In this document: positions 15,967 to 34,398 of the stretch, piece after piece
Layout: each line of letters begins with the position of its first letter
How positions within the stretch are numbered: position 1 is the first letter of the stretch
Assembly: GCA_005880615.1 (NCBI GenBank)
Contig: VBID01000119.1
Location: forward strand, 1 to 52,904
Source: Chloroflexota bacterium
Lineage (GTDB): Bacteria > Chloroflexota > Dormibacteria > CF-121
Direction of reading: 5' to 3'
Length of the DNA stretch: 52,904 nt
The notes under the pieces: model-generated
Told to the model about the DNA's origin: nothing
Database searches by the model: none
Seen by the model: the letters and a program-made list of their open reading frames with translations, nothing else
Made by a program: the position numbers and the translations under genes

Positions 15967-17595
15967 CTAGGCCAGCCCGGTGATGGTCCCCGCGCCGTCG
16001 ATGTCGATCCGGGTGTAGGCGGGCTCCTTGCCCAGGCCGGGCATCAGCTGGATGTCACCCGACAGCGCGACATTGAATCCAGCGCCGACCGACGGATACA
16101 CCGAGCGCACCGGGAAGGTGAACCCGCGCGGCCGCCCCTTCAACGCCGGGTCGTGGGACAGCGAGAGGTGCGTCTTGGACATGCAGACCGGCAGCGTTCC
16201 CATGCCGCGCTCGCTGAGCCAGTCGATCCGCTTCTGGCATTGCGGCAGGAATTCCACCCCACCGGCACCGTACAGGCGGTGGGCCAGGATCTCAATCTGT
16301 TCGCGGATCGGAGTCTGCGGTCCATACAGCGGCCGGAAGCCGTTGGCACCTCGACCCGCCCGGACCACGGCCTGGGCCAGCTCCACTGCCCCCTCGCCGC
16401 CGCGGCCAAAGCCGTCGTGGACGACCGCCTCCTCGGCTCCGTACCCGAGGGCCAGCTCGACCACCCGACCCAACTCCCGGTCGGTATCGGTCGGAAACTT
16501 GTTGACCGCGACCACCGGATGCAGCCCGAAGGCATGCACGATCTCCACGTGGGCGGCCAGGTTTTCGGCGCCGCGCTCCAGCGCATCCGCGTCCTCCACC
16601 TCAAGCTTGGACGCGCCGCCGTGCGCCTTCAGCGCCCGCACCGTGCAGACGACCACCGCGGTCGAGGGCTTCAAGTTCCCATAACGCGCCACGATGTGAC
16701 AGAACTTTTCCAGGCCCAAGTCGGCGCCGAAGCCGGCCTCGGTGACCACGATGTCGCCCAGCTTCAACGCGATCCGATCGGCGAGCAGCGAGTTGTTCCC
16801 ATGGGCGATGTTGCCGAACGGGCCCGCGTGCACGAGCGCGGGCTGCCCCTCCATGGTCTGCACCAGGTTTGGCAGGAGCGCATCCTTCAGCACCACGGTC
16901 ATCGCCCCCGCCACCCGCAAGTCGTCGGGCGTCACGATCGACCCATCGCGACGCTCCGCCACCAGGAGCCGGCCCAGCCGGGCCCGCAGGTCGGCCCGGT
17001 CGTGCGCCAGCGCCAGGATGGCCATGATCTCCGAGGCCGCGGCAATGATGAAGCTCGACTCCTGGGGCACGCCGTGCTCTGCCCCGCCGAGCCCGGTGAC
17101 GATGTGCCGGAGGGATCGGTCGTTCATGTCCAACGTGCGGGGCCAGCGCAGCGTCTTGGGCTCGATTCCCAGCGGATTGCCGTGAAAGATCGAGGCATCC
17201 ACCGCGGCCGCCAGCAGGTTGTGGGCGCTTTCGACGGCGTGGATGTCGCCGTTGAAGTGCAGGTTGATGTCTTCCATCGGCACCACCTGCGACCGTCCGC
17301 CGCCGGTGCCCCCGCCCTTGATCCCAAACAGTGGGCCCATGGACGGCTGCCGCAGGGCCAGCACCACCTTCTGGCCGATCCGGCCCAGCCCCTGCGTGAG
17401 CGCGATGGCGGAGGTGGTCTTGCCTTCCCCCGCGCGGGTCGGCGTCACCGCGGTCACCACCACCAGCTGCCCGTCGGGCCGGTCGCTCAGCCGGTCGATC
17501 GCCTCCAGCGAGACCTTGGCCTTGTACGGACCGTAGGAGATGATCTCCGAGGGCTTCAGTCCCAGCTCCGCGCCGACCTCGAGGATGGGCTTCAT
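15967..17595 (-). CDS. fhs: Formate-tetrahydrofolate ligase
   Basis: 542 residues, close to the ~556 norm. Fhs interconverts formate + ATP + THF with 10-formyl-THF; run backwards it yields ATP and formate. Landmarks: VTPTRAGEGKTTSAIALTQGL (P-loop, with two residues more than the usual TPAGEGKTT), LRQPSMGPLFGIKGGGTGGG, DINLHFNGDIHAV, LDMNDRSLR, GPFGNIAHGNNSLLAD, VVTEAGFGADLGLEKF, VVAVNKFPTDT and MSKTHLSLSHDP. It begins at 17595, overlapping the small protein gene by 4 nt, and is the last enzyme of the leftward corrinoid operon. In that context it would release C1 units as formate while conserving ATP, provided a FolD elsewhere supplies 10-formyl-THF. Confidence 0.97.
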   Translation of the reverse strand: MKPILEVGAELGLKPSEIISYGPYKAKVSLEAIDRLSDRPDGQLVVVTAVTPTRAGEGKTTSAIALTQGLGRIGQKVVLALRQPSMGPLFGIKGGGTGGGRSQVVPMEDINLHFNGDIHAVESAHNLLAAAVDASIFHGNPLGIEPKTLRWPRTLDMNDRSLRHIVTGLGGAEHGVPQESSFIIAAASEIMAILALAHDRADLRARLGRLLVAERRDGSIVTPDDLRVAGAMTVVLKDALLPNLVQTMEGQPALVHAGPFGNIAHGNNSLLADRIALKLGDIVVTEAGFGADLGLEKFCHIVARYGNLKPSTAVVVCTVRALKAHGGASKLEVEDADALERGAENLAAHVEIVHAFGLHPVVAVNKFPTDTDRELGRVVELALGYGAEEAVVHDGFGRGGEGAVELAQAVVRAGRGANGFRPLYGPQTPIREQIEILAHRLYGAGGVEFLPQCQKRIDWLSERGMGTLPVCMSKTHLSLSHDPALKGRPRGFTFPVRSVYPSVGAGFNVALSGDIQLMPGLGKEPAYTRIDIDGAGTITGLA

Positions 17596-17870
17596 GGCTT
17601 TTCCATCAAGCGAGAGCGGGGGTACGCCTGGTCCAGCTCTGTCACCAGGGCCTCGGCGACGTCCGCCGCGGATCCGGCGCGCTCCGCCTGCGGACTCCAG
17701 CGCCAGCCATCCAGATAGGCGTCCATCTCGGTTGACCCCTCCCGCATGGCATACGCATCGATCGCCGTCATGAACCGGTCGGGCAGCATCCGCTTCACCT
17801 CTCCCGTCTCATCCCACACCTTGACCTGCGAGGGAATGTGCTTCCAGTACATCACCTGATATCGCGCCAT
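17592..17870 (-). CDS. Small 'virulence factor' family protein (Virulence_fact domain)
   Basis: 92 residues. The sequence YWKHIPSQVKVWDETGEVKRMLPDRFMTAIDAYAMREG resembles the small Pfam family called Virulence_fact, whose name is historical and does not describe a function. I recall such genes beside DUF1638 and ASKHA activator genes in alphaproteobacterial demethylation clusters, and the same neighbours are present here. The protein is acidic at its C-terminus, without membrane segment or cysteine. Its start overlaps the DUF1638 stop by 1 nt and its stop overlaps fhs by 4 nt. A role in corrinoid protein handling is inference from context only. Confidence 0.7.
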   Translation of the reverse strand: MARYQVMYWKHIPSQVKVWDETGEVKRMLPDRFMTAIDAYAMREGSTEMDAYLDGWRWSPQAERAGSAADVAEALVTELDQAYPRSRLMEKP

Positions 17871-20292: not shown

Positions 20293-20296
20293 GCGC

Positions 20297-20442
20297 AGTG
20301 TCCCGAGTCGGAGGTTCGGTCAGAAAGTCGCGGCCTCGGCGGCCGGTGCCAAGGCAGGGGCCCCCTAACGCCGGCATCAGCGCCAGAGGCGCCCGGCCGC
20401 CCAGGCCGATGAATTTCCAACGAATTTCTGACTTGGGACACT
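20297..20442. repeat. 146-bp inverted-repeat element between methyltransferase and activator genes
   Basis: Outer arms of 22 nt, at 20297-20318 and 20421-20442, are inverted copies matching at 18 of 22 positions (AGTGTCCC outermost on both sides). After a 12-nt unpaired stretch on each side, a second pair matches 15 of 16 (CGGCCTCGGCGGCCGG against CGGCCTGGGCGGCCGG, read on opposite strands). The element therefore folds into one long interrupted hairpin. It carries the stop codon of the upstream methyltransferase gene and ends 4 nt before the activator start codon. It may be a MITE-like insertion or a cis-acting RNA structure limiting activator translation. No clear target-site duplication is seen. 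Confidence 0.6.
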
Positions 20443-21304
20443 AAACCGCCGCCACCTTCTTCTGTTGCTCGCGAAAGTCGGCGATCCAGCGCATGGCGTA
20501 CTCGTCGTGGCCCAGCAGCAGGTCGCCGGCCATCACGGCCTTGCGAACGGCGGGCTCCAGCGCATTGGTCACCCCGCAGGTCAGTCCGGCATCCATGGCC
20601 AGCGGCAGGAAGGCCGCGTTGACGATCGGCCGGTCGGGAAGCCCAAACGACACGTTGGAGGCTCCGCAGGTCATGTTGTTACCCAGCGCATCGCGAATCA
20701 GCCGCATGGTGCGCAGCGTGATCACGCCTGCCTGTGGGTCGGCCGCCACGGTCATGGCGATCGGGTCGATGATCACGTCCTCGGCCGGGATCCCGTAATA
20801 GGCGGCTCGCTCCACGATCTTCCGAGCAATCTGGAGCCGCTCCTCGGGCACCATGGTGATGCCGGTTTCGTCGTTGGCCATCCCAATGACCGCGGCGCCG
20901 TACTTCTTCACCAGTGGCAGGATCCGATCCAGCCGCTCGTCCTCGGCGGTGACGGAGTTGACGAGCGCCTTGCCCTCATAGACCGGCAGGGCAGCCTCCA
21001 GCGCCTCGACCACCGAGGAGTCGATGCAGATCGGGACGTCGACCACCTCCTGGACGGATCGGATGGCCAGGACCAGCAGGGCCGGCTCGTCGATTCCCGG
21101 CACGCCGGCGTTGACGTCGAGCAATTGGGCCCCCGCCTGTACCTGGGCGATGGCGTCGGCCTTGACCCGGTCCATCTTGCCCGCCTTCATCTCGGCGGCC
21201 AGCACCTTGCGCCCGGTGGGATTGATCCGCTCCCCGATCATCACGAAGGGCCGCTCCCCCGAGATGACGACCTCCTTCGTGCGCGACCGAACCACGGTGT
21301 TCAC
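20441..21304 (-). CDS. Methyltetrahydrofolate:corrinoid methyltransferase (pterin-binding)
   Basis: 287 residues from a GTG at 21304, which overlaps the MetF-like stop as GTGA; the frame is open further but into metF. TIM-barrel pterin-binding domain: FVMIGERINPTGRKVL, GAQLLDVNAGVPG, PICIDSSVVEALEAAL, ALVNSVTAEDERL, GMANDETGI, IIDPIAMTV and TCGASNVSFGLPDRPIVNAAFL. These are landmarks of the AcsE/MtgA/MtvA group, which moves a methyl group between a corrinoid protein and THF. There is no cobalamin domain, so the partner is the separate corrinoid protein upstream. In catabolism the direction would be methyl-Co to THF. The stop codon lies inside the inverted-repeat element. Confidence 0.93.
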   Translation of the reverse strand: MNTVVRSRTKEVVISGERPFVMIGERINPTGRKVLAAEMKAGKMDRVKADAIAQVQAGAQLLDVNAGVPGIDEPALLVLAIRSVQEVVDVPICIDSSVVEALEAALPVYEGKALVNSVTAEDERLDRILPLVKKYGAAVIGMANDETGITMVPEERLQIARKIVERAAYYGIPAEDVIIDPIAMTVAADPQAGVITLRTMRLIRDALGNNMTCGASNVSFGLPDRPIVNAAFLPLAMDAGLTCGVTNALEPAVRKAVMAGDLLLGHDEYAMRWIADFREQQKKVAAV

Positions 21305-22242
21305 GCGGGAATCCCCACCACGCTGGGCCGGGGCAGCAGCCGGGCCTCCTCGATCACCCGCATCACGCCTTCCTCCCACTTGATGGCGATCACGTGCACC
21401 CCAGCCACGCCCGGGATCTGGCGCAGCTCGGCCACGATCTCGGTCGCGATCTTGATCCCCTCGGCACTCTGGTGCCCCGTCGGGACGCCCTCCAGGCGTC
21501 GCACGATCGCCTCCGGGACCGACACCCCGGGCACCTTGTCCTTCATGAAGCGGGCGGCGCGAGCCGACCGAGCCACTCCCACGGACGGCAGGATGAACAC
21601 CTGCTGGATGAGGCCCAGATCCCGCACCCGGGCCATGAACTCCCGGAAGCGCGGCACGTCGAAGACCAGCTGCGTCTGGATGAACTCGGCGCCGGCGGCC
21701 ACCTTCTTGCCCAGCCGCAGAGGCCGGAAGTCGAGGGGCGGGGCGAACGGGTTCTCCACGGCTCCAATAAAGAAGGATGGCGCCGCCTCCAGCTTCCGAC
21801 CGGACAGATACTCGCCTCGATCGCGCAGCCCGCGGGCGACCTCGATCAGCTGCAAGGAATCGATGTCGTAGATCGAGCGCGCCTGCGGGTGATCCCCCGC
21901 CGAGACGTCATCGCCGCTCATCAGCAGCACGTTGCGCACGCCCAGCGCGGCGGCGCCCATCAGGTCGGCCTGCAGGGCGAGCCGGTTCCGGTCGCGGGTG
22001 GCCAGCTGCATGATCGGCTCCACTCCCCGATCGATCAGGAGGCGGGCGGCCGCCAGCGACGACAGGTGCACGTGCGCGCCGGTGTTGTCGGTGCAGTTGA
22101 CGGCGTCCACGTGATCGCGCAGCGGGTCGACCTTCCGGAAGACCGCCCCCGGGTCGGCCGAATCCACCGCCGAGAGCTCGGCCGTGACCACGAACTGGCC
22201 CCGGCGCAGCAGCCCGGCCAGCCGGCTAGGCGCTCGGTCCAT
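21301..22242 (-). CDS. metF: Methylenetetrahydrofolate reductase-like protein (MetF family)
   Basis: 313 residues. FAD-dependent TIM barrel with VVTAELSAVDSADP (active-site region near the N-terminus), VDAVNCTDNTGAHVHLSSL, PIMQLATRDRNRLALQADLMGAAALGVRNVLLMSGDD, AAPSFFIGAVENPF, KKVAAGAEFIQTQLVFDV and VFILPSVGV. It would oxidise methyl-THF to methylene-THF in the demethylation direction. The neighbouring MetV-like gene overlaps by 17 nt, and the MetF+MetV pairing is known from acetogens and related bacteria, where the reductase is a complex. The electron acceptor cannot be judged. It is translationally coupled at both ends. Confidence 0.92.
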   Translation of the reverse strand: MDRAPSRLAGLLRRGQFVVTAELSAVDSADPGAVFRKVDPLRDHVDAVNCTDNTGAHVHLSSLAAARLLIDRGVEPIMQLATRDRNRLALQADLMGAAALGVRNVLLMSGDDVSAGDHPQARSIYDIDSLQLIEVARGLRDRGEYLSGRKLEAAPSFFIGAVENPFAPPLDFRPLRLGKKVAAGAEFIQTQLVFDVPRFREFMARVRDLGLIQQVFILPSVGVARSARAARFMKDKVPGVSVPEAIVRRLEGVPTGHQSAEGIKIATEIVAELRQIPGVAGVHVIAIKWEEGVMRVIEEARLLPRPSVVGIPA

Positions 22243-22609: not shown

Positions 22610-22613
22610 CGGC

Positions 22614-23330
22614 CTATCCCTTTCGCAGCGTCTCGTCGATCAGCTTGACCGCCTGTTCCAGCGCGGCGCTCTGCGGCGCGTCTGCGGCGCCCAGGATCTC
22701 CTTCGCCTTGCGCGTCGCGAAGGAGGCATCCGGGGCATACCAGTCGGCGCCGGCCAGCTTCGCGTACTCCTCGGTGACCGGCGCGCCGCCGACCATCACC
22801 ACCACTTTCTCGCGCAGCCCGGCCTTCTTGAGGGCCTCGATGTTGACCTTGAACATGGGCATGGTGGTGGTCAGGAAGGCGGAGAAGCCGACGATGTGCG
22901 GTTCGTGCTGGCGGACCGCGTCCACGAACTTCTCGGGGGGCGTGTTCACGCCGAGGTCCACCACGTCGAAGCCCGCTCCCTCCAGCATGATGATCACCAG
23001 GTTCTTGCCGATGTCGTGGATATCGCCCTTGACCGTGCCGATCACGTACTTGCCGATGGGCTTGGCGCCGGTCTCGGCGATCAACGGGCGCAGGATGACC
23101 AGCGCCCCCTGCATGGCGCGCGCCGCGATCAGCATCTCCGGCACGAAGAAGTCGCCCTTCTCGAAGCGGCGTCCCACTTCCTCCAGGGACGGGATGAGCG
23201 CCTTGAACAGGATGTCCATCGGGTCCATGCCGAGCCTCAACCCTTCTTCGGTGAGCGCCTTCACCTCGGGCGCGTGCCCGTTGAGCGTGTGATCGAAGAG
23301 CTCCTGCCGAATCTCCTCCTCGCGGCTCAT
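22614..23330 (-). CDS. Corrinoid (methyl-carrier) protein of a methyltransferase system
   Basis: 238 residues. An N-terminal helical cap (about 1-90, with LIPSLEEVGRRFEKGDFFVPEMLIAARAM) and a C-terminal B12-binding Rossmann domain with D103-x-H105-x2-G108 (KGDIHDIGKN), giving base-off/His-on cobalt ligation. Further landmarks are GFDVVDLGVNTPPEKFV, GFSAFLTTTMPMF and VMVGGAPVTEEYAKLAGADWYAPDA. Members of the MttC/MtgC/MtvC group accept a methyl from an MttB-family enzyme and pass it to a THF methyltransferase; both partners are in this locus. A good AGGAGGAG site precedes the ATG, inside the end of the IclR gene (4-nt overlap). Confidence 0.95.
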   Translation of the reverse strand: MSREEEIRQELFDHTLNGHAPEVKALTEEGLRLGMDPMDILFKALIPSLEEVGRRFEKGDFFVPEMLIAARAMQGALVILRPLIAETGAKPIGKYVIGTVKGDIHDIGKNLVIIMLEGAGFDVVDLGVNTPPEKFVDAVRQHEPHIVGFSAFLTTTMPMFKVNIEALKKAGLREKVVVMVGGAPVTEEYAKLAGADWYAPDASFATRKAKEILGAADAPQSAALEQAVKLIDETLRKG

Positions 23331-24130
23331 GCCTTGCCTCCTCCTGTTGGGGATGGGATGAACCCCATCCGGCGTGAGATCGCCTCCGCCGCCTCGTGCG
23401 TCATTTCGCCCAGCTCACTCAGTCGTTGGGGCGAGACCCGGTAGGACGGTCCGGAAACGCTAACGGCCGCGATCACCTCGCCCCGTGAATCGCGCACCGG
23501 CGCCGCCACCGCATTCAACCCCACCTCGAGCTCCTCGAGCGTGAAGGCGTATCCGTCCTCGCGCACCCGCTGCAGCTGCTTCTCCAGGGTGGCCCGTTCG
23601 GTGATGGTTCGGGGCGTCAGCCGTGGCAGCGGCTTGCTCAGCAACCGGCGCCGATCGTCAGGGGACAGGAATGCCAGCAGCACCTTGCCAGTGGACGTGC
23701 AATGCATCGGGTTCTGCTTCCCGACCCAGTTGACGTTGACCACCAGGTGGGGCGCCGAGATCTGGTCGATGTTGACCACCTGGTCACCCTGGAGGAGGGC
23801 CAGGTTCACGGTCTCGCGCGTCCGGTCGGCCAGTTCCTGCATGACCGTCCGGGCGGCCCGGGCCAGATCTAGCTCTGCCACCACGGCCCCGGCCAGCCGC
23901 ACCAACCCGTAGCCCAGCCGGTACTTCTCCGAGGCCGGGTTCTGCTCGACCAGCCCGTGCTCCTGCAAGGTCGCCAGCAGCCGGGAGGCCGTCGATTTGT
24001 GCACCTCCAGCCGCCGGGCCAGCTCCGTGACCCCCAGCTCCCCGCCGGCATTGGCCAGCAGGTCCAGCATCTCCAAAGCGCGCCCGAGGGACTGAATCCG
24101 GTTGTTGCGCAGTGCAAAACCGGTGCTCAT
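23327..24130 (-). CDS. IclR family transcriptional regulator
   Basis: 267 residues. Winged helix-turn-helix at the N-terminus (ELGVTELARRLEVHKSTASRLLATLQEHGLVEQ, about 31-63) and an IclR effector-binding domain with CTSTGKVLLAFL, YAFTLEELEVGLNAVAAPVRDSRGEVIAAVSVSGP and EAAEAISRRMGF. It is the first gene of the leftward C1 operon and overlaps the corrinoid gene by 4 nt, so it probably controls its own operon in response to a substrate or product. It faces a divergent GntR gene across 144 bp, where operator sites are expected. The ATG at 24130 follows a poor ribosome site. Confidence 0.93.
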   Translation of the reverse strand: MSTGFALRNNRIQSLGRALEMLDLLANAGGELGVTELARRLEVHKSTASRLLATLQEHGLVEQNPASEKYRLGYGLVRLAGAVVAELDLARAARTVMQELADRTRETVNLALLQGDQVVNIDQISAPHLVVNVNWVGKQNPMHCTSTGKVLLAFLSPDDRRRLLSKPLPRLTPRTITERATLEKQLQRVREDGYAFTLEELEVGLNAVAAPVRDSRGEVIAAVSVSGPSYRVSPQRLSELGEMTHEAAEAISRRMGFIPSPTGGGKA

Positions 24131-24223
24131 GGCACAACACTAGCGAAGTGTGCGGCAAAAGGCAAGAGGGCGGGGCGACGACCCCTTGACGGTCCTCCGA
24201 AGCGGTGCTAGCGTTCGCCCGAG

Positions 24224-24256
24224 CCGATATATCAGCGTCATACGAGCGATATACGG
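24224..24256. promoter_or_regulatory. Inverted repeat upstream of the GntR gene, candidate operator
   Basis: CCGATATATC (24224-24233) and GATATACGG (24248-24256) are inverted copies differing by one extra base, separated by 14 nt, and are unusually AT-rich for this region. The site lies between the divergent IclR and GntR genes, 19 nt before the GTG of the GntR gene. A TTGACG hexamer is at 24186-24191. It may bind one of the two regulators or overlap the promoter. No experimental basis. Confidence 0.45.
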
Positions 24257-24274
24257 CGAGGAGGGAGGAGCGTC

Positions 24275-24973
24275 GTGCGCAGCCCGGCCGGGGTCGCGCG
24301 GGGGATGGCGGAATCATCACCGCTGCGCACTGTGGTGCTCGACGGCGCCGCCGCCCGGTCGCAGAGCGAACGGGCCTATCTCCTGATCCGGGACCAGATC
24401 GTCACCCTCAAGCTGCGGCCGGGCGCGGTCATCGAGGACAGCCGCCTGCGCCAGGAGCTGCACCTGGGCCGGACCCCGATTCGGGAAGCCTTGCAGCGGC
24501 TGGCCCACGAGAAGCTGGTCACCTTCGTCCCCCACCGAGGCACCTTCGTCACGGACATCAACGTCACCGACCTGGCCCGCCTCACCGAGGTCCGGGTCGA
24601 GCTGGAGGGCTACGCGGCCCGCCTGGCCACCGAACGGGCGGCGCCCCAGGAGCAGGAGGCGATGCAGGTCCTCACCCGCGAGCTGAGTGCCCTGGACGGC
24701 GATCCGGAGGCACTCATCCATCTCGACCAGCGCATTCACCGGCTCGTCTATCGGGCCAGCCACAACCGCTTCCTGGAAGACGTCTGCGAGCGCTACTTCA
24801 ACCTCAGCCTGCGCGTGTGGTTCCTGGTCCTCCATCGGGTGCCCCTCAAGGAGGCGGTGGAGGAACAGCGCGAGACGCTGGACGCGATGCTGGCGCGCGA
24901 CCCGGTCCGGGCGGAGGCGGCCGTGCGCCGGCACGTCACGGGGTTTGAAGCGCAGGTCCGGAAGGTTCTGTAA
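24275..24973 (+). CDS. GntR family transcriptional regulator (FCD subfamily)
   Basis: 232 residues from a GTG at 24275, preceded by a strong GAGGGAGGAG at 24261-24270. N-terminal winged helix (RAYLLIRDQIVTLKLRPG-type start; SRLRQELHLGRTPIREALQRLAHEKLVTFVPHRGTFV, about 56-95), followed by an all-helical FCD ligand-binding domain with FHRLVYRAS-like HLDQRIHRLVYRASHNRFL and a terminal VRRHVTGFE helix containing metal-binding His positions. FCD regulators usually sense organic acids. It is the first gene of the rightward operon and precedes the metallophosphoesterase by 14 nt, so it likely regulates the transporter and catabolic genes. Confidence 0.92.
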   Translation: MRSPAGVARGMAESSPLRTVVLDGAAARSQSERAYLLIRDQIVTLKLRPGAVIEDSRLRQELHLGRTPIREALQRLAHEKLVTFVPHRGTFVTDINVTDLARLTEVRVELEGYAARLATERAAPQEQEAMQVLTRELSALDGDPEALIHLDQRIHRLVYRASHNRFLEDVCERYFNLSLRVWFLVLHRVPLKEAVEEQRETLDAMLARDPVRAEAAVRRHVTGFEAQVRKVL

Positions 24974-24987
24974 GCGAGGAGGAAAGC

Positions 24988-25920: not shown

Positions 25921-26007
25921 GAGGTGCAAGGGAAAACAGAACCCGGAAGGGTCGACGGCGACCACGTATCTAACTAGAAAAATACACGCAAGGAGAGTGA
26001 AGCGGTT

Positions 26008-27660
26008 ATGTCGGTCTCTACTCCAACAACGGGCCGGCCAACCCTCTTCCTGAGGAATGCCACCGGGCTCGTCAAGGCGTGGTCCGGCTTCGATGCGTTC
26101 ATTTACTCGTTCATGTCGGTCAGCCTCGTGTCGCTCGGCTTCGGCGCCTTTGGCTTCGTCAGCTTCGTGGCAGGGGGACACATCCTGTCAGCGGTCCTGT
26201 TCAGCGGGGTCTTCGTTTCATTCCTCGTGATCACCTATGCGCTGCTGGTCACCGCCATGCCGCGCGCGGGCGGCGATTACACCTGGCAATCGCGAATCCT
26301 CGGCGGCGGTGCCGCCTTCGTCCTTTCGATGACCGGCTGGTGGTTTATTCTCTGGCACTGGACGCCGATCTACGCCGGCATCCTGAACCAGCAGGTGCTG
26401 GCCCCGCTCGCCGCGACGATCGGCCGGCAGGATTGGGCCGTCCTCTTGCCGGGATCCCTGGTGCCGAATGGCGGCAATGGACTGTTTTTCGCTTCCCTGG
26501 TCGTCGTCGCCTTCGTCTGCATCTACGTGACGCTCGGTATGGAGACGTACGCTCGCATCCAGAAGTTCAGTTTCTATCTGGGTATAGCCGGCCTGGCTGT
26601 GATGGCCGTCATCCTGCTCTTCAGCAGCGGGGACGCGATGCACCAGGCCGTCAACCGCGAGGCCGCCAGCCTTTTCGGCTACACCGGGCCGGACGCATAC
26701 CAGGCCACGATTGACCTGGCCACCAAAAACGGCTACAGTCCATCGTCCTTCAACGCGTTTTCGCTTGGTCCGACGCTGGCGATCGTTCCCTTCCTGATGT
26801 TCTATCTGCTCTGGCCGGTATGGGGGGCGACGCTGTACGGCGAGGTGCGCGGAACGCGCGATTACCGCAGGATCTTCACCAGCATGTTCTGGGGCCTGTG
26901 GGCGACCGTGATCCTCTCCGTCGTCGTGCTGCTGCTGATGGCCAAGACCATCGGGTGGGAGTTCTTCGAGGCTGCGGCCTACAACAACAGCCTCGGGCTC
27001 GCGAACCAACCGATCCCGATCTGGCCGCACCCGGTCATGCTGGCGGGCTGGCTGGTGAACAGCCACGTCTTCCAGTTCATCCTGCTGGCCGTGATGAGCG
27101 TCTGGTTCTGGGGCTGGTCGGGCACCCTGTTCCTCTCCTCGACGCGCGTCATTTTCGCGGCCGCGTTCGACCGGGTCCTTCCCGAGTGGGCCGCCAACAT
27201 CTCCGCCAAGCGGCGCGTTCCCTATGGGGCGCTCGGGCTCATGGTCATCCCCTCCATCGTGGTCAGCGCGATCTACGCCTACGTCAGCGGGTTCGAGGCG
27301 CTCGTCCTCGACGCCACGCTCGTGATTGCGATCACGTTCCTGGGAACCGTGGTGGCCGCCGCTATCCTGCCCTGGCGCCGCGCGACGATCTTCAACAGCT
27401 CGCCCATTTCGAAGCTTCGAGTGGCTGGGGTCCCGGTGATCACACTCGCGGCCGTGGTCACGGGGGCCTTCCTGATCTTTAACCTGGTGAAGTGGTTCAC
27501 CGACTCAACCTACGGCGTCGGCTTCAGCAACCCGAATTCGCTGAAGTACCTGGCCGTCCTGTACGTCCTGGCGTTCGTCGTCTACGTCGGGTTCTTCCTC
27601 TACCGGCGCTCGCAGGGCATCGACCTGCGTGCGATCCACGCGGAGATCCCGGTCGAATAA
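26008..27660 (+). CDS. APC superfamily amino acid/amine permease
   Basis: 550 residues, with about 12 or more transmembrane helices. The ATG at 26008 is preceded by AAGGAG at 25990-25995. N-terminal FLRNATGLVKAWSGFDAFIYSFMSVSLVSLGFGAFGF corresponds to helix 1 with its unwound Gly-rich segment. TAMPRAGGDYTWQSRILGGGAAFVLSMTGWWFILWHW matches helices 2-3 of the APC fold. FLSSTRVIFAAAFDRVLPEWAA is a typical APC loop. It is the only carrier in the demethylation locus and thus the likely importer of the methylated amine or amino acid; betaine importers are more often BCCT or ABC type. The substrate remains unproven. Confidence 0.88.
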   Translation: MSVSTPTTGRPTLFLRNATGLVKAWSGFDAFIYSFMSVSLVSLGFGAFGFVSFVAGGHILSAVLFSGVFVSFLVITYALLVTAMPRAGGDYTWQSRILGGGAAFVLSMTGWWFILWHWTPIYAGILNQQVLAPLAATIGRQDWAVLLPGSLVPNGGNGLFFASLVVVAFVCIYVTLGMETYARIQKFSFYLGIAGLAVMAVILLFSSGDAMHQAVNREAASLFGYTGPDAYQATIDLATKNGYSPSSFNAFSLGPTLAIVPFLMFYLLWPVWGATLYGEVRGTRDYRRIFTSMFWGLWATVILSVVVLLLMAKTIGWEFFEAAAYNNSLGLANQPIPIWPHPVMLAGWLVNSHVFQFILLAVMSVWFWGWSGTLFLSSTRVIFAAAFDRVLPEWAANISAKRRVPYGALGLMVIPSIVVSAIYAYVSGFEALVLDATLVIAITFLGTVVAAAILPWRRATIFNSSPISKLRVAGVPVITLAAVVTGAFLIFNLVKWFTDSTYGVGFSNPNSLKYLAVLYVLAFVVYVGFFLYRRSQGIDLRAIHAEIPVE

Positions 27661-27673
27661 TCGTTGACAGCGC

Positions 27674-27699
27674 GGCGGAGGCCCCCATGGGCCTCCGCC
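27674..27699 (+). terminator. Strong hairpin between permease and alcohol dehydrogenase genes
   Basis: Perfect 11-bp stem GGCGGAGGCCC / GGGCCTCCGCC with a CCAT loop, starting 13 nt after the permease stop and ending 25 nt before the next start codon. There is no T-run after it, so it is more likely a partial attenuator or mRNA 3'-end stabiliser within the operon than a full terminator. Confidence 0.6.
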
Positions 27700-27724
27700 A
27701 ACTTCTTGAAATGGGAGGTCAGGC

Positions 27725-28936: not shown

Positions 28937-28938
28937 CC

Positions 28939-30393
28939 ATGTGGAAGAACACGCTGAAGCGATACGAGATTCTCTCTGACGACGACGTGCGCCGCATCCA
29001 CGAGCACGCCATGCTGATCCTCTCCGAGATCGGCGTCGACTTCCTCCACCCGAAGGCGCTGCATCTGCTGAATGAGGCCGGCATGAAGGTCGAAGACCGG
29101 CGGGTCCGCTTCGATCCGGCCTGGGTGATGGCCCAGGTGAAACAGGCGCCCAGCATGTTCGAGGTGCAGGCGCGCAACCCGAAGAAGACCATCACCATCG
29201 GCGGCGACTTCATGGTCAACGCCCCGACCTACGGGCCGCCCTTCATTACCGACCTGGATCGCGGCCGCCGGGGCGCCACCATCGGGGACTTCACCAATTG
29301 GGACAAGATGTGCCAGGCCACGCCCCAGATCCACTGCGCCGGGGGCACCACGGTAGAGCCGGAGGACTTGCCCCTCGATACGCGCCACCTGGACATGGTG
29401 TACTCCCACATCCGCTGGACCGACCTGCCCTACATGGGCAGCGTGATCTCCGCTGACAACGCCCAGGACTCTATCGAGATGACCAGCATCGTCTTCGGCG
29501 GCCGGGACAAGATCGAGAAGACCGCGGGCCTCCTGGGGCTGGTGAACGTCAACAGCCCGCTCCGCTACGACGATCGGATGCTGGGCGCGTTGCTCGAGTA
29601 CGCGGCGGCCAATCAGCCGGTCCTCGTCACCCCATTCCTGATGGCGGGCGCCATGTCGCCCATGGGGCTGGCCGGCACTATCGCCCAGCAAACCGCCGAA
29701 GCGCTGGCCGGCATCGCCCTGATCCAGGTGGTGCGCCCCGGCGCCCCCTGCATCTACGGGTCCTTCCTCACCAATACGGACATGCAATCGGGCAGCCCGT
29801 CCTTTGGGACCCCGGAGTCCGCCCTCGGCATCCTGGCCAGTGCCCAGATGGCGCGCCACTACAAGATCCCCTTCCGCGGCGGCGGCGCCCTGACCTCGTC
29901 GAAGTCGCCGGATGCCCAGGCGGCCTACGAATCGATGATGTGCATGTGGCCCACCGTCTTGGGCGGCGTCCATTTCGTCCTGCACGCGGCCGGCTGGCTG
30001 GAGAGCGCGCTGCTCGCGTCCTACGAGAAATTCATCATCGATGTCGAGGCGCTCCGCATGTTCGAGTGGATCCTGCAGAAAGGTTTCCCGCTGGACGAGG
30101 AGGGGTTCGCCATGGACGCCATCCGCGAGGTGGGGCCGGGCGGGCATTTCCTGGGTGCCGAGCACACCCTGCGCCACTACCGGGATGGCTTCTACCGCCC
30201 GCTGATCTCCTCCACTGAGAATTTCGACCGCTGGAATCGGATGGGCGCCCGCACTGCCGACAAGGTGGCCAACGAGAAGTGGAAGAAGCTGCTGGCCGAC
30301 TACCAGGACCCCGGCATTGACCCGGGCGTTGACGAGGAGTTGAAGCGCTTCATTGCCGTCCGCAAGGAAGCGATCGAGCATGCCGTCGCGTGA
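28939..30393 (+). CDS. MttB-family (non-pyrrolysine) quaternary amine methyltransferase
   Basis: 484 residues. Trimethylamine methyltransferase (MttB) family TIM barrel: N-terminal YEILSDDDVRRIHEHAMLILSEIGVDF, QVKQAPSMFEVQARNP, NAPTYGPPFITDLDRGRR, HCAGGTTVEPEDLPLDTRHLDMVYSHIRWTDLPYMG, CIYGSFLTNTDMQSGSPSFGTPESALGILASAQMARHYKIPFRGGG and AGWLESALLASYEKFIIDVE. The whole frame has no internal stop, so unlike archaeal MttB there is no amber pyrrolysine codon. Such proteins include MtgB (glycine betaine), MtpB (proline betaine) and MtcB (carnitine); the exact substrate is undecided. It hands a methyl group to the corrinoid protein encoded on the other strand. The 3' end overlaps the next gene by 14 nt. 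Confidence 0.93.
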   Translation: MWKNTLKRYEILSDDDVRRIHEHAMLILSEIGVDFLHPKALHLLNEAGMKVEDRRVRFDPAWVMAQVKQAPSMFEVQARNPKKTITIGGDFMVNAPTYGPPFITDLDRGRRGATIGDFTNWDKMCQATPQIHCAGGTTVEPEDLPLDTRHLDMVYSHIRWTDLPYMGSVISADNAQDSIEMTSIVFGGRDKIEKTAGLLGLVNVNSPLRYDDRMLGALLEYAAANQPVLVTPFLMAGAMSPMGLAGTIAQQTAEALAGIALIQVVRPGAPCIYGSFLTNTDMQSGSPSFGTPESALGILASAQMARHYKIPFRGGGALTSSKSPDAQAAYESMMCMWPTVLGGVHFVLHAAGWLESALLASYEKFIIDVEALRMFEWILQKGFPLDEEGFAMDAIREVGPGGHFLGAEHTLRHYRDGFYRPLISSTENFDRWNRMGARTADKVANEKWKKLLADYQDPGIDPGVDEELKRFIAVRKEAIEHAVA

Positions 30394-32923
30394 CGACCTC
30401 CCTGGTGACGCGCGCGTCGTCATCATCGGGGCGGGCATTGTCGGCTGCAGCGCCGCCTACCACCTGACCCGGCTGGGCTGGAAGGACATCGTCGTCCTCG
30501 ACCAGGGCCCGCTTTTCGAGGCCGGCGGTTCGACCTCGCACGCCCCTGGCATGGTCTTCGAGAACAACGCCGCCCGCACCACCTGTCACTTCGCCATGCG
30601 CTCGGTGGACGTCTATCGCGACCTGCGTCTCAACGGCGAGTCGCTTTGGACTGAGGTCGGCAGCCTGGAGGTCGCCACCACGCCCGAGCGCTGGGAGGAG
30701 CTGAAGCGCCGCAACGGCCACGCCACTTCGTGGGGACTGGAGACCCACCTGATCGGACCCGACGAGATCAAGCGAATGGTGCCCATCATGCGCACCGACC
30801 ACCTGTACGGCGCGATTCAGGTGCCCCGTGACGGCACGGTCCGGACCACCCGCGCCTGCGAGGCGCTGGCTCGCTTGGCGGCGCCCAACGGTGCCCGCTT
30901 TTTCGGCCGGACCCGGGTGACCGGCATCGAAGTCCGCAACGGTCGCGTAGAAGCGGTCCTCACGGAGGGCGGCCGCATCCGCTGTGAACAGGTCCTGTGC
31001 GCCGCTGGCATCTGGGGCCCGCTGGTCGGCCGGATGGCCGGCGTCCCCATCCCGCTCCAGCCCATGCAGCACCTCTACGCTATCACCGACCCCCTGCCCG
31101 AGTTCCACGGGGACACAGCCTGGCAGTCGACGCCGCTCGTCCGCCACCAGGACAAGTCGATGTACTTCCGCCAGCACTACCAGGGCTATCTGTTGGGGTC
31201 CTACCGCCATGAGCCCGTCCTGGTCGACGCGGCGGACATCCGGCGCCATGAGGACGATCCGATGATGCCCTCCTGCCTGCCGTTCCGGGACGACCTGTTC
31301 CAGGCCGCGCTGGCCAACGCCCAGGAGCTCTATCCGCCCCTGAGGTCGGCCGAGCTCGTCGAAAAGGTGAACGGGATGTTCTCCTTCACCCCCGATGCCC
31401 ATTCGCTGATTGGTGAGTCGCTAGACGTGCGCGGGTTCTGGGCCTGCGAGGCGGTCTGGCTGACGCACGGCCCGGGCGCCGCCCAGGCCGTCGCGGAGTG
31501 GATGGTGGAGGGCATCCCCAGCCTGGACCTGCGCGAGGAAGACCTCAACCGCTTCTACCCGTACGTCCAGAGCCCCAGCTATGTGCGGGCCCGCGGCGCC
31601 CAGAACTATCGTGAGATCTACGACATCATCCATCCGTTGCAGCCGATGGCCAAGCCCCGCCAGCTCCGCCTCACGCCCTTCTATGACCGGGAGGTTGCCC
31701 TCGGGAGTTTCTTCACCGAGACCGCCGGCTGGGAGCGCCCGCTCTGGTATGAAGCCAACCAGCCGCTGTTAGAAGCGGCTCCCGAGTTTCCGGTCAGGTC
31801 CGGATGGGCGGCCCGCTTCTGGTCTCCCGCCCAGGGGGTTGAGCACCAGGCCGCCCGCGAGCGGGCTGTGCTCTTCGACGCCACGCCCTTCGTCAAGATC
31901 GAGGTCACGGGTCGCGGCGCGCTGGCCTATCTGCAGCGGCTGGCCGCCAACCAGATGGACCACCCGGTGGGAAAGGTGACCTACACCGCCATGCTCAACC
32001 AGCGCGGCGGCATCATGACCGACCTCACCGTGACGCGAATCGATGAGGAGCGGTTCTGGGTGGTCACCGGGGGCGGAGTCGGGATGCACGACCTGGCCTG
32101 GATGCGCAGCCAGCTGCCCATGGATCACTCCGTTCGCCTGGAGAACCTGACCTCGGGCTGGTGCTGCATCGGCGTCTGGGGCCCGCGGGCCCGCGACCTG
32201 GTCCAGCCGCTGGCCCAGGAGGACGTCTCCAATGCCGCCTTCCCCTACCTGACCGGGCAGCCGGTGACCATCGGCAACGTGCCCTGCTACGCCATCCGCA
32301 TCTCGTACGTCGGTGAGCTGGGCTGGGAGGTCTATGCCCCGTCCGAGTACGGGCTCCGGCTGTGGGACACGCTCTGGCAAGCGGGTCAGCAGCAGGGCGT
32401 GATCGCGCTGGGCGGTGGCGCCTTTGACTCGCTGCGCCTGGAGAAGGGCTATCGCAACTGGGGCGTAGACATGTACAGCGAGCACAACCCCTACGAGGTG
32501 GGCATCGGCTTCGCCGTCCGGCTCAACAAGGGCGACTTCATCGGCCGCGACGCGCTCCTCCGGAGCAAGGAGCAGGGGATCACCCGCAAATTGAGCTGCA
32601 TGACCTTGGACGACCCCACCGTGGCGGTCATGGGCAAGGAGCCCATCTTCGTCGACGGGCAGGTGGCCGGCTTCGTCACCAGCGCCAATTACGGCTACAC
32701 CGTCGGTCAAAGCATCGTGTACGGTTACTTGCCGGTGGAGCACGTGGCGGCCGGAACCAAGGTCGAGATCCAGTACTTCGGCAAGCGCTACCCCGCGACC
32801 GTGCGAAAGGAACCGCTGTTCGACCCGGAGATGACGCGACTCAAGGAAACCGTGCCTTCGCTCCCTCTGTCCCAGGGCGAGAGCGGGCGGGGAGTGCGCG
32901 ACAGGGAGACGGCGAGGACATGA
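30380..32923 (+). CDS. FAD-dependent dimethylglycine/sarcosine dehydrogenase-like enzyme with GcvT domain
   Basis: 847 residues from the ATG at 30380. N-terminal DAO domain with the dinucleotide fold VVIIGAGIVGC (17-22 GxGxxG) and GGSTSHAPGM, in which H54 matches the His that covalently binds FAD in dimethylglycine dehydrogenase. The FAO_M linker follows near 375-430. The C-terminal GcvT folate-binding domain (about 440-840) has TPFVKIEVTGRGALAYLQRL, YTAMLNQRGGIMTDLTVTR, SYVGELGWEVYAPSEYGLRLWDTLWQAG and EVGIGFAVRLNKGDFIGRDAL. It oxidatively demethylates N-methyl amino acids and captures formaldehyde as methylene-THF. After DPEMTRLK, the usual family end, there are 26 extra residues derived from a repeat-like sequence. 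Confidence 0.93.
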   Translation: MPSRDDLPGDARVVIIGAGIVGCSAAYHLTRLGWKDIVVLDQGPLFEAGGSTSHAPGMVFENNAARTTCHFAMRSVDVYRDLRLNGESLWTEVGSLEVATTPERWEELKRRNGHATSWGLETHLIGPDEIKRMVPIMRTDHLYGAIQVPRDGTVRTTRACEALARLAAPNGARFFGRTRVTGIEVRNGRVEAVLTEGGRIRCEQVLCAAGIWGPLVGRMAGVPIPLQPMQHLYAITDPLPEFHGDTAWQSTPLVRHQDKSMYFRQHYQGYLLGSYRHEPVLVDAADIRRHEDDPMMPSCLPFRDDLFQAALANAQELYPPLRSAELVEKVNGMFSFTPDAHSLIGESLDVRGFWACEAVWLTHGPGAAQAVAEWMVEGIPSLDLREEDLNRFYPYVQSPSYVRARGAQNYREIYDIIHPLQPMAKPRQLRLTPFYDREVALGSFFTETAGWERPLWYEANQPLLEAAPEFPVRSGWAARFWSPAQGVEHQAARERAVLFDATPFVKIEVTGRGALAYLQRLAANQMDHPVGKVTYTAMLNQRGGIMTDLTVTRIDEERFWVVTGGGVGMHDLAWMRSQLPMDHSVRLENLTSGWCCIGVWGPRARDLVQPLAQEDVSNAAFPYLTGQPVTIGNVPCYAIRISYVGELGWEVYAPSEYGLRLWDTLWQAGQQQGVIALGGGAFDSLRLEKGYRNWGVDMYSEHNPYEVGIGFAVRLNKGDFIGRDALLRSKEQGITRKLSCMTLDDPTVAVMGKEPIFVDGQVAGFVTSANYGYTVGQSIVYGYLPVEHVAAGTKVEIQYFGKRYPATVRKEPLFDPEMTRLKETVPSLPLSQGESGRGVRDRETART
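32852..32895 (+). repeat. Pyrimidine/purine-rich hairpin-like element inside the 3' end of the dehydrogenase gene
   Basis: A CCCTCTGTCCCAGGG stretch followed by CGAGAGCGGGCGGGGAG resembles the degenerate CCCTCTCCC...GGGAGAGGG elements found between genes in many GC-rich genomes, and is similar in character to 50047-50082. It encodes the extra tail of the dehydrogenase-like protein, so the element seems to have displaced the ancestral stop codon. Weak match. Confidence 0.35.
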
Positions 32924-34398
32924 AGGTGGTCGAGCGCGGGACGGCAACCAAAGCTGAGACCCTGAAGATGTTCATCGGCGGCCAGTGGGTCGGGTCCGAG
33001 AGTGGCGAGACCTTCGCCGCCACCAGCCCCGGCAGCGGAGAAACGATCGCCAGCATTCCGAAAGGGACGCGCCAGGATGCCCAACACGCGGTGGAGGCCG
33101 CCCACCGGGCGCGCGAGGCCATGGCCCGGCTGGGCGCTTTCGAACGGGCCAGGCTGCTGCACCGGGTGGGCGATGTGATGGAGCACCGGCGCGACGACCT
33201 GGCGCGCTGGCTGACCCTCGACCAGGGCAAGCCCTACAAGGCGGAGGCCCAGGGCGAGGTGTCGGAGGCCATCGAGTACTTCCGGATCGCCGCCGAAGAC
33301 GTGAAGCGCCTGGAAACCAGCGTCATCCCCTCGATGAGCCCCCAGAAGCTGGTGTTCACCCTGCGGGTGCCGCGCGGCGTCTACGGCATCATCACCCCCT
33401 GGAACTGGCCCCTGACCATGGCCACCGAATTCATCGCGCCGGCGCTGGCCGGCGGGAACACGGTGGTCTGGTCGCCGGCCTCCAGCACCTCGGCCATCTC
33501 GGTAAAGCTGGCCGAGTGCCTGGCCGAGGCCGACCTGCCCCCCGGTGCCTTCAACCTGGTGACCGGCCCCGGTTCGGTGGTCGGCGATGAGATCGCCGGC
33601 CATGCCCAGGTTGCCGGCGTCGGCTTCGTCGGCTCGACCGAGACCGGACACCTGGTGGCCAGGCGGGCGGCCGGGAAGCACACCATGCTCGAGATGGGCG
33701 GCAACGGCCCGATCATCATCTTCAAAGACGCCAACCTGGACAAGGCCGTGGCCGGCACCATCGTCGGCTGTTACCTGTGCGCCGGCCAGAGCTGCACCGC
33801 GGGCGAGCGGATCCTGGTCGAGGCGTCGGCCCAGGACGAGTTCATCGCCAAACTGACGGCGGCCGTGGCTGGGCTCCGCCTGGGCGATCCCTTCGACGAC
33901 GAGACCACGCTGGGGCCGCTGAACAACGAGGAGACCGCCCGCAAGATGGACGAGCACATCGCCGACGCGACGGACCGCGGCGCCAAGATCGTCAGCGGTG
34001 GCAAGCGCGGAGAGAACTTTCCCACGCGGTTGTACTACCAGGCCACCATCCTGCGGGACGTCACCCCGCAGATGCGGGTCAGCCAGGAAGAGACCTTCGG
34101 CCCCATCGCGCCCATCATCCGGTTCGCGACCGAAGACGAGGCCCTGCGGATCGCCAACGACTCCCCCTACGGCCTGCTGGGCGCCGTCTACACGCGCGAT
34201 ATCGCCCGCGCGCTCCGGTTTGCCGAACGGCTGGAGACCGGCTGGGTCAACATCAACGAGTCGTCGAACTACTGGGAAGCCCACATCCCGTTTGGCGGGC
34301 GGGCCGGCAAAGATAGCGGCCTGGGCCGGGTGGGCGGCCACTTCGCCCTCGAGCAGATGACCGATCTGAAAACGGTGATCATCGACAAGGAGGACTGA
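32920..34398 (+). CDS. Aldehyde dehydrogenase (NAD(P)+-dependent family)
   Basis: 492 residues, ordinary length. Landmarks: YGIITPWNWPLTMATEFIAPALAGGNTVVWSPAS (catalytic Asn in PWNWPL), FVGSTETGHLVARRA, LEMGGNGPIIIFKDANLDKAV (general base Glu near 257), GQSCTAGERILVE (catalytic Cys near 291) and EETFGPIAPIIRF. The catalytic Cys-Asn-Glu set is complete. The substrate may be a betaine aldehyde-like, methylated or short-chain aldehyde; formaldehyde or methylmalonate-semialdehyde variants cannot be distinguished. It begins with ATGA overlapping the preceding stop and is the last clear member of the rightward C1 operon. Together with the iron ADH it suggests oxidation of an alcohol-bearing substrate. 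Confidence 0.95.
   Translation: MKVVERGTATKAETLKMFIGGQWVGSESGETFAATSPGSGETIASIPKGTRQDAQHAVEAAHRAREAMARLGAFERARLLHRVGDVMEHRRDDLARWLTLDQGKPYKAEAQGEVSEAIEYFRIAAEDVKRLETSVIPSMSPQKLVFTLRVPRGVYGIITPWNWPLTMATEFIAPALAGGNTVVWSPASSTSAISVKLAECLAEADLPPGAFNLVTGPGSVVGDEIAGHAQVAGVGFVGSTETGHLVARRAAGKHTMLEMGGNGPIIIFKDANLDKAVAGTIVGCYLCAGQSCTAGERILVEASAQDEFIAKLTAAVAGLRLGDPFDDETTLGPLNNEETARKMDEHIADATDRGAKIVSGGKRGENFPTRLYYQATILRDVTPQMRVSQEETFGPIAPIIRFATEDEALRIANDSPYGLLGAVYTRDIARALRFAERLETGWVNINESSNYWEAHIPFGGRAGKDSGLGRVGGHFALEQMTDLKTVIIDKED

What the first reader, a model, noticed from the sequence alone, without database searches (positions are those of the whole stretch)
15967..34398. Complete divergent corrinoid demethylation and C1-oxidation module in a probably non-acetogenic organism
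Seen: MttB-family enzyme, corrinoid carrier, methyl-THF:corrinoid methyltransferase, RACo-type activator, MetF/MetV pair, formate-THF ligase and a GcvT-fused FAD demethylase in two divergent operons, with permease, alcohol and aldehyde dehydrogenases and two regulators. Known: each family participates in methylamine or betaine demethylation, best described in acetogens, methanogens and a few aerobes. Inferred: this locus couples import, corrinoid demethylation, oxidative demethylation and ATP-yielding release of formate, an unusual full set next to an alcohol/aldehyde oxidation arm.
Basis: partly seen in the sequence, partly recalled or inferred. Interest (0 to 1): 0.75.

Follow-up and report, generated by a model that had tools for sequence, protein, structure and literature searches.

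The report
Soil-bacterium choline and betaine degradation cluster
A gene cluster in an uncultivated soil bacterium appears to oxidise choline to glycine betaine and strip off its methyl groups with a vitamin-B12 protein; the same system was recently shown in marine bacteria, so this is a well-conserved new member in a different phylum rather than a new mechanism.

Summary
In detail: every named gene is present, in two divergent operons (15967-34398). The 'alcohol/aldehyde arm' is best read as choline oxidation: the Fe-ADH passes NCBIfam's curated cutoff for GbsB-type choline dehydrogenase (575 vs 550 bits), and the FAD-GcvT protein is closest to dimethylglycine oxidase (769 bits). The best reading is choline -> betaine aldehyde -> glycine betaine -> (MttB/MtgB plus corrinoid, methyl-THF out) -> dimethylglycine -> sarcosine, with MetFV, FolD, Fhs and formate dehydrogenase oxidising the methyl group. 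FolD and a probable selenocysteine formate dehydrogenase lie elsewhere in the genome; acetyl-CoA synthase was not found. The MttB groups with proteobacterial homologues and D. hafniense MtgB, and keeps all four predicted betaine-site residues. Synteny is strong in related Dormibacterota MAGs. The same core sits on Sinorhizobium, Paracoccus and Azoarcus plasmids. Aerobic MtgBCD demethylation was shown in Ruegeria in 2025 (PMC12478193). This is a new member of a known kind, in a phylum for which my literature searches found no report. The most interesting by-product: 'Virulence_fact' PF13769 looks like part of corrinoid reactivation (fused to RACo in Terrarubrum). No activity has been shown.

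The parts
15967..17595 (-). fhs, formate-THF ligase (only copy in the genome)
   Evidence: PF01268 753.7 bits; sole genome hit
17592..17870 (-). PF13769 'Virulence_fact' protein, predicted corrinoid-reactivation accessory
   Evidence: PF13769 77.8 bits; fused to RACo in Terrarubrum flagellatum L099
17870..18466 (-). DUF1638 protein, predicted corrinoid-reactivation accessory
   Evidence: PF07796 100.8 bits; mutants of the P. inhibens homologue are rescued by methionine (PMC5764234)
18463..20292 (-). RACo/RamA-like corrinoid activator (2Fe-2S + ASKHA)
   Evidence: PF14574, PF17651, PF17650, PF00111; 2Fe-2S cysteines present
20441..21304 (-). methyl-THF:corrinoid methyltransferase (MtgD-like; likely GTG start at 21304)
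   Evidence: PF00809 100.5 bits; NF005719 308.6 vs cutoff 259
21301..22242 (-). MetF, methylene-THF reductase
   Evidence: PF02219 111.6 bits
22226..22609 (-). MetV-like, MetF C-terminal-domain protein with eight cysteines
   Evidence: PF12225 97.5 bits; cysteines
22614..23330 (-). corrinoid protein (MtgC-like)
   Evidence: PF02310 + PF02607; B12 motif DIHDIG
23327..24130 (-). IclR-family regulator, first gene of the minus operon
   Evidence: PF01614, PF09339
24131..24274 (.). 144-bp divergent intergenic region, presumed control region
   Evidence: sequence read; no sigma-70-like site found above chance in the region
24275..24973 (+). GntR/FCD-family regulator, first gene of the plus operon
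   Evidence: PF00392, PF07729
24988..25920 (+). metallophosphoesterase-like protein, role unknown, conserved in the cluster
   Evidence: PF14582 below cutoff, PF00149 at cutoff; 78-86% identical in relatives
26008..27660 (+). APC-superfamily permease, presumed choline/betaine importer
   Evidence: PF13520 52.6 bits
27725..28936 (+). GbsB-type Fe-dependent choline dehydrogenase
   Evidence: NCBIfam NF053866 575 vs cutoff 550; PF00465
28939..30393 (+). non-pyrrolysine MttB-family methyltransferase (MtgB-like)
   Evidence: PF06253 639 bits; betaine-site residues kept; tree
30380..32923 (+). dimethylglycine oxidase-like FAD + GcvT protein
   Evidence: best PDB 1pj5, 769 bits; residues equivalent to H225, Y259, D552 kept
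32920..34398 (+). aldehyde dehydrogenase, presumed betaine aldehyde -> glycine betaine
   Evidence: PF00171 516.6 bits; below the BADH equivalog cutoffs

Best explanation
The two divergent operons encode a choline/glycine-betaine catabolic pathway. Choline (or betaine) enters, probably through the APC permease. A GbsB-type Fe-ADH and the ALDH oxidise choline to glycine betaine. The MttB-family protein (MtgB-like) moves one methyl from glycine betaine to Co(I) on the corrinoid protein, leaving dimethylglycine. The methyl-THF:corrinoid methyltransferase passes the methyl to THF. RACo, with DUF1638 and PF13769 as presumed partners, re-reduces corrinoid that has slipped to Co(II). The dimethylglycine oxidase-like protein takes the second methyl as methylene-THF, giving sarcosine, and sarcosine oxidase genes elsewhere make glycine. 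MetF-MetV run in reverse, then FolD, Fhs and a selenocysteine formate dehydrogenase oxidise the C1 units to formate/CO2, probably with ATP at Fhs. Shown: gene content, motifs, synteny, family membership. Inferred: substrate, direction of flux, transport specificity, energy gain.
For: Fe-ADH passes the curated choline dehydrogenase (GbsB) model, and GbsB is the B. subtilis choline-oxidising enzyme (PMC6207618). MttB keeps Y94, N199, R309 and H345, the predicted betaine-site residues of DhMtgB (PMC6855144), and forms a 100/99 group with proteobacterial homologues and DhMtgB. The FAD/GcvT protein is closest to dimethylglycine oxidase with catalytic residues kept. In sibling genus G017 the same cluster also holds ETF alpha/beta beside another DMG-dehydrogenase-like gene, and SoxA/SoxB sarcosine oxidase. 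Azoarcus carries the same corrinoid core with betaine ABC transporters, ETF, purU, and betA, betB and MttB about 20 kb away. FolD, FDH and tRNA-Sec are in the genome. In Ruegeria, mtgC and mtgD mutants cannot grow on glycine betaine (PMC12478193). MttB and DUF1638 occur together in 6 of 6 and are absent together in 9 of 9 class members sampled in both searches (p = 0.0002).
Against: No biochemical or growth data exist for this lineage. The ALDH is below both betaine-aldehyde dehydrogenase equivalog cutoffs and scores better as a succinate-semialdehyde/lactaldehyde-type enzyme. The permease has no subfamily assignment and is not a BCCT or Opu type. DhMtgB F353 is Ala here, though proteobacterial homologues also lack it. 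In family f3 relatives a 74-78% identical MttB has no choline genes beside it, so the link to choline is not universal.
Confidence: 0.8

Rival explanations
1. Same corrinoid machinery, but the methyl donor is a different quaternary amine (carnitine, gamma-butyrobetaine, proline betaine), and the Fe-ADH and ALDH act on its carbon chain.
For: MttB-family members differ in substrate (MtpB, MtcB, MtyB; PMC8604678). The ALDH is nearer to succinate-semialdehyde-type enzymes. A Rhodobacter relative lies in the same neighbourhood as hpbA, an N-methyl-L-proline demethylase gene.
Against: GbsB equivalog passed; the FAD/GcvT protein is dimethylglycine-oxidase-like, which would have no obvious substrate if the product were norcarnitine or N-methylproline; all four DhMtgB site residues are kept.
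Confidence: 0.1
2. Phosphocholine route as in Eubacterium limosum MthK/MthB: choline is phosphorylated, demethylated as phosphocholine, dephosphorylated by the metallophosphoesterase, and the dimethylethanolamine is then oxidised to dimethylglycine by the Fe-ADH and ALDH.
For: Sibling genomes have a choline-kinase-family gene (PF01633, 87 bits) between the permease and Fe-ADH genes; the metallophosphoesterase gene is conserved in the operon; precedent in PMC12155760.
Against: The window itself has no kinase in the operon (the nearest relative found in this genome is on contig 58, 39% identical); the MttB keeps the predicted site residues of glycine-betaine-specific MtgB; the kinase scores best on a GntI-like model, not a proven choline kinase.
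Confidence: 0.06
3. The corrinoid protein and methyltransferase serve mainly as a split methionine synthase, as MtgC and MtgD do in Phaeobacter and Ruegeria.
For: The only PF00809 proteins in the genome are this methyltransferase and DHPS, so no canonical MetH was found. Homocysteine methyltransferase-family genes exist on C204, C63 and C162. The dual role is shown in Ruegeria (PMC12478193).
Against: MetE-family genes are present. The C63 and C162 proteins are only 26-28% identical to S. meliloti Bmt/MtgE. The linked MttB, dimethylglycine oxidase and choline genes point to catabolism. The assembly is about 90% complete, so absence of MetH is not certain.
Confidence: 0.04

Closest known systems
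Aerobic MtgBCD glycine betaine demethylation system of Ruegeria pomeroyi (PMC12478193) and the homologous loci of Sinorhizobium meliloti pSymB (L062) and Paracoccus aminovorans plasmid IV (L061)
   Same: Non-Pyl MttB, separate corrinoid protein, methyl-THF:corrinoid methyltransferase, RACo/RamA, DUF1638, MetF (with MetV on the plasmids), and in L061 and L062 the same divergent layout with MttB facing away from the corrinoid operon.
   Different: The window adds a GbsB-type choline dehydrogenase, ALDH, dimethylglycine oxidase and Fhs in the same unit. MttB identity to L061/L062 is only about 46%, and the organism belongs to another phylum.
Desulfitobacterium hafniense MtgB (PDB 2qne, 9yce) anaerobic glycine betaine methyltransferase
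   Same: 46% identical; predicted betaine-site residues Y94, N199, R309, H345 kept; grouped with 100/99 support.
   Different: F353 is Ala and I349 is Trp, close to the proteobacterial pattern (Trp349, mostly Gly353); the corrinoid protein is below the NCBIfam MtgC cutoffs.
Bacillus subtilis GbsAB choline-to-glycine-betaine pathway
   Same: Type III Fe-ADH passing the GbsB equivalog cutoff, with an aldehyde dehydrogenase in the same operon.
   Different: In Bacillus it makes an osmoprotectant; here it would feed degradation. The ALDH is not a clear GbsA/BetB orthologue.
Arthrobacter globiformis dimethylglycine oxidase (PDB 1pj5)
   Same: Full-length match, 769 bits, with H225, Y259 and D552 equivalents.
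   Different: Whether it reduces O2 or an electron-transfer flavoprotein is unknown here.
Eubacterium limosum MthK/MthB/MthC/MthA choline demethylation
   Same: Choline-derived methyl to corrinoid to THF; sibling genomes carry a choline-kinase-family gene.
   Different: The window lacks the kinase in the cluster and has oxidative genes for making glycine betaine instead.

Membership tests
Aerobic MtgBCD glycine betaine demethylation system | Non-pyrrolysine pfam06253 methyltransferase (MtgB) | tested here: met
   PF06253 639 bits with an uninterrupted frame; tree groups it with DhMtgB and S. meliloti 4yyc at 100/99
Aerobic MtgBCD glycine betaine demethylation system | Predicted glycine betaine site residues of DhMtgB | tested here: met
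   Y94, N199, R309, H345 kept; F353 not kept, as in proteobacteria
Aerobic MtgBCD glycine betaine demethylation system | Separate corrinoid protein and methyl-THF:corrinoid methyltransferase | tested here: met
   47-51% identical to L061/L062 partners
Aerobic MtgBCD glycine betaine demethylation system | RamA/RACo activator and DUF1638 | tested here: met
Aerobic MtgBCD glycine betaine demethylation system | Glycine betaine:corrinoid methyl transfer activity | not testable with these tools
   needs purified proteins
Aerobic MtgBCD glycine betaine demethylation system | Dual role in methionine synthesis with an MtgE protein | tested here: inconclusive
   no MetH found, but MetE-family genes present and only 26-28% matches to S. 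meliloti Bmt among the standalone homologues
GbsB-type choline dehydrogenase (NF053866) | Passes curated equivalog score | tested here: met
   575 vs 550 bits
Betaine-aldehyde dehydrogenase (TIGR01804, PRK13252) | Passes curated equivalog score | tested here: not met
   396 vs 668.6 and 378 vs 593 bits; filed only as ALDH superfamily, substrate by context
Dimethylglycine oxidase/dehydrogenase | DAO + GcvT architecture with active-site residues | tested here: met
   full-length match to 1pj5, H225/Y259/D552 equivalents present
Pyrrolysine trimethylamine methyltransferase MttB (TIGR02369) | Equivalog score and in-frame UAG (pyrrolysine) | tested here: not met
   300.7 vs 525 bits; no internal stop
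Anaerobic-type MtgC (NF047995, NF047996) | Passes curated score | tested here: not met
   151 vs 310 and 194 vs 370 bits
Acetogenic Wood-Ljungdahl pathway | Acetyl-CoA synthase (CdhC/AcsB) | tested here: not met
   no PF03598 in the genome; assembly 90.5% complete
E. limosum MthK/MthB choline system | Choline kinase gene adjacent to the MttB-family gene | tested here: not met
   absent in the window; present in sibling loci L003, L085, L086

The most novel reading that the evidence does not exclude
The misnamed 'Virulence_fact' family PF13769 and DUF1638 are dedicated partners of RACo that keep corrinoid demethylation running in aerobic bacteria, forming a three-part reactivation system shared by Dormibacterota and Proteobacteria. 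Support: PF13769 lies directly between DUF1638 and Fhs here, lies in corrinoid operons of Azoarcus, Sinorhizobium and a Gemmatimonadota plasmid (L101), and is fused to RACo in one Terrarubrum protein. I found no paper on PF13769 in the library searched.
Probability: 0.45. Interest if true: 0.55.

Novelty: new member of a known kind. Interest (0 to 1): 0.4.

Why it matters
It extends aerobic B12-dependent betaine demethylation from marine Proteobacteria to an uncultivated, soil-dwelling phylum, and predicts that these bacteria can live on choline and betaine from plants and membranes. It also gives a testable role to two poorly described families, one of which is labelled 'virulence factor' and probably is not.

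Tried and rejected
Pyrrolysine MttB: rejected (no in-frame stop; equivalog score not reached). Acetogenesis: rejected (no CdhC domain). Anaerobic-type MtgC by NCBIfam: cutoffs not met. A purely methionine-synthesis role: held as a minor or secondary role only. Placing MttB in a tree with MtpB, MtcB and MtyB: not possible, sequences not in the collections available; an identity table and a tree with DhMtgB, 4yyc and plasmid homologues were made instead. Structure predictions of DUF1638 (pLDDT 88.9) and PF13769 (pLDDT 93.5) found no useful solved relative: TM-scores of the top hits at or below about 0.4, sequence profiles nothing. Sigma-70 promoter and terminator scan: nothing above chance. In-frame TAG reports in distant Chloroflexota MttB genes looked like possible pyrrolysine; a quick check found no internal-TAG MttB frame and no tRNA in those stretches. 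Cobalamin synthesis genes were not checked.
Full report
WHAT IS THERE. The window is contig 16 of a 3.59-Mb, 241-contig genome estimated 90.5% complete. Its nearest relatives are soil MAGs labelled Chloroflexi CF_* or Candidatus Dormibacteraeota/Dormiibacterota, so I call it Dormibacterota-like. Two operons diverge from a 144-bp gap at 24131-24274. Minus strand, in order of transcription: iclR, corrinoid protein, metV, metF, methyl-THF:corrinoid methyltransferase, RACo, DUF1638, Virulence_fact (PF13769), fhs. Plus strand: gntR, metallophosphoesterase-like, APC permease, Fe-ADH, MttB, FAD/GcvT, ALDH. All families except the metallophosphoesterase-like one are assigned by Pfam with scores clearly above cutoff; start and end codons mostly overlap or nearly touch, as in translationally coupled operons. 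Cofactor motifs are intact.

WHAT THE ALCOHOL/ALDEHYDE ARM IS. The Fe-ADH passes the NCBIfam choline dehydrogenase equivalog model for Bacillus GbsB, 575 against a cutoff of 550. GbsB is the type III alcohol dehydrogenase that oxidises choline to betaine aldehyde in B. subtilis (PMC6207618). The Fe-ADH stop and the MttB start are 2 bases apart, and the pair is conserved in the loci most like the window (L003-L012 and family f1). The ALDH does not reach the betaine-aldehyde dehydrogenase cutoffs, so its substrate rests on context. The FAD/GcvT protein matches Arthrobacter dimethylglycine oxidase over its whole length at 769 bits; the residues aligned with H225, Y259 and D552 (catalytic roles from my knowledge of the published enzyme; letters verified here) are identical. 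Together these give choline, betaine aldehyde, glycine betaine, dimethylglycine, sarcosine, with MttB at the one step that needs a corrinoid.

THE METHYLTRANSFERASE. Best solved relatives are S. meliloti 4yyc and D. hafniense MtgB 2qne/9yce. Identity to DhMtgB is 46.0%. The four residues proposed for glycine betaine binding from modelling and docking (Y94, N199, R309, H345; PMC6855144) are all kept in the window and nine Dormibacterota relatives, while more distant family members have others. F353 is Ala, with Trp at 349, a pattern close to that of the proteobacterial proteins (Trp349, mostly Gly353). In a maximum-likelihood tree the Dormibacterota proteins are one clade, sister to the proteobacterial clade with 100/99 support, and DhMtgB joins next with 100/99. 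It is not a pyrrolysine enzyme.

THE REST OF THE PATHWAY IN THIS GENOME. FolD is on C178. A formate dehydrogenase alpha subunit on C75 scores 638 bits (cutoff 666; the match starts at model position 52) with one TGA in the context NSCNRT-U-HAPS, the usual selenocysteine site of FdhA, and a tRNA-Sec above its gathering score is on C83. The window's Fhs is the only one. SoxA- and SoxB-like sarcosine oxidase genes lie on C190. No CdhC/acetyl-CoA synthase domain was found. So the methyl group can in principle be taken to CO2 and the organism is not an acetogen by this test. Direction of MetF and Fhs is inference, supported by induction of MetF2 on betaine in Ruegeria (PMC12478193).

CONSERVATION. 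In G017 of the same family the whole nine-gene minus operon is conserved at 70-90% identity, and in G129, G103 and G138 as far as the contigs reach. In L012 and G103 it diverges from the transport/choline operon as in the window. In G017 the cluster is larger: between the two operons lie another DMG-dehydrogenase-like gene and ETF beta/alpha genes, and beyond fhs lie SoxA/SoxB. Several siblings (L003, L085, L086) have a second FAD/GcvT gene and a choline-kinase-family gene between the permease and Fe-ADH. In another family of the class (f3), a 74-78% identical MttB faces corrinoid-MT-RACo-DUF1638-PF13769 without metFV, fhs or choline genes. Among 15 class members sampled in both searches, MttB and DUF1638 occur together in 6 and are both absent in 9 (p = 0.0002, ignoring relatedness).

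COMPARISON WITH WHAT IS KNOWN. The 2018 genetics of Phaeobacter linked DUF1638 and a RamA-like protein to B12 reactivation (PMC5764234). In 2025 Mausz and colleagues showed that mtgC and mtgD of the aerobe Ruegeria are needed both for glycine betaine use and methionine synthesis, with MtgB, RamA, DUF1638 and MetF2 induced, and reported co-located genes in many marine bacteria and S. meliloti (PMC12478193). The plasmids of S. meliloti and P. aminovorans carry the core divergent from MttB, and Azoarcus carries it beside betaine transport, ETF and purU genes, with betA, betB, folD and MttB about 20 kb away. The window is therefore a member of this known kind. What is new is the phylum (my two searches found no report), the pairing with a GbsB-type rather than BetA-type choline dehydrogenase, and Fhs inside the operon.

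A BY-PRODUCT. PF13769 'Virulence_fact' is annotated as a virulence factor, yet here and on the plasmids examined it belongs to corrinoid-related operons, and in Terrarubrum flagellatum one 760-residue protein joins PF13769 to a complete RACo, directly after corrinoid and DUF1638 genes. This gene fusion is good evidence of a shared function in corrinoid reactivation. Predicted structures are confident but resemble no solved protein well, so the chemistry is open. DUF1638 has invariant C9, H37, C68, H90 and C91 in the Dormibacterota alignment, which could bind a metal or cofactor (inference).

WHAT REMAINS UNCERTAIN. No substrate, activity or growth has been shown. The ALDH and permease assignments rest on context. 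A role in methionine synthesis is possible because no MetH was found, though MetE-family genes are present. Aerobic life of this organism was not tested here. The MAG is incomplete, so absences are provisional.

Noticed in passing
L099 9001-11283 (Terrarubrum flagellatum plasmid): PF13769 'Virulence_fact' domain fused to a complete RACo corrinoid activator in one 760-aa protein, following corrinoid and DUF1638 genes; the family name is probably misleading.
   Followed up: partly
L067 / L091 1483-3384 (own genome C75) and L076 (C83): Formate dehydrogenase alpha subunit with an in-frame TGA at the usual selenocysteine site, plus a tRNA-Sec above its gathering score: selenoprotein synthesis in a Dormibacterota-like genome.
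   Followed up: partly
L093 2369-7704 (own genome C58): Second cluster with a permease, a choline-kinase-like protein (39% to the sibling loci) and a DMG-dehydrogenase-like FAD/GcvT protein; possibly the missing half of the sibling clusters.
   Followed up: partly
L088 4179-5246 and L089/L045 (own genome C63, C162): Two homocysteine/betaine-homocysteine methyltransferase-family genes, each near FAD oxidoreductase genes (C63 also near a SoxA-like gene); function unclear.
   Followed up: partly
L002 1441-2346 (own genome C31): Second, contig-truncated MttB-family gene, 30% identical to the window's, lacking the betaine-site residues at the positions covered.
   Followed up: no
window 36489-43658 (-): 2389-aa protein rich in YD/RHS-type repeats with an RHS-core-like C-terminus, next to the cluster but apparently unrelated to it (read by eye, not searched).
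   Followed up: no
L003 7772-8698: Choline-kinase-family gene inside sibling clusters that scores best on the GntI model (pre-guanitoxin N-oxide kinase, below its cutoff); its substrate would decide whether a phosphocholine step exists.
   Followed up: partly
window 24988-25920: Weakly assigned metallophosphoesterase-like protein conserved at 78-86% identity in the family-f1-type clusters reached, role unknown.
   Followed up: partly
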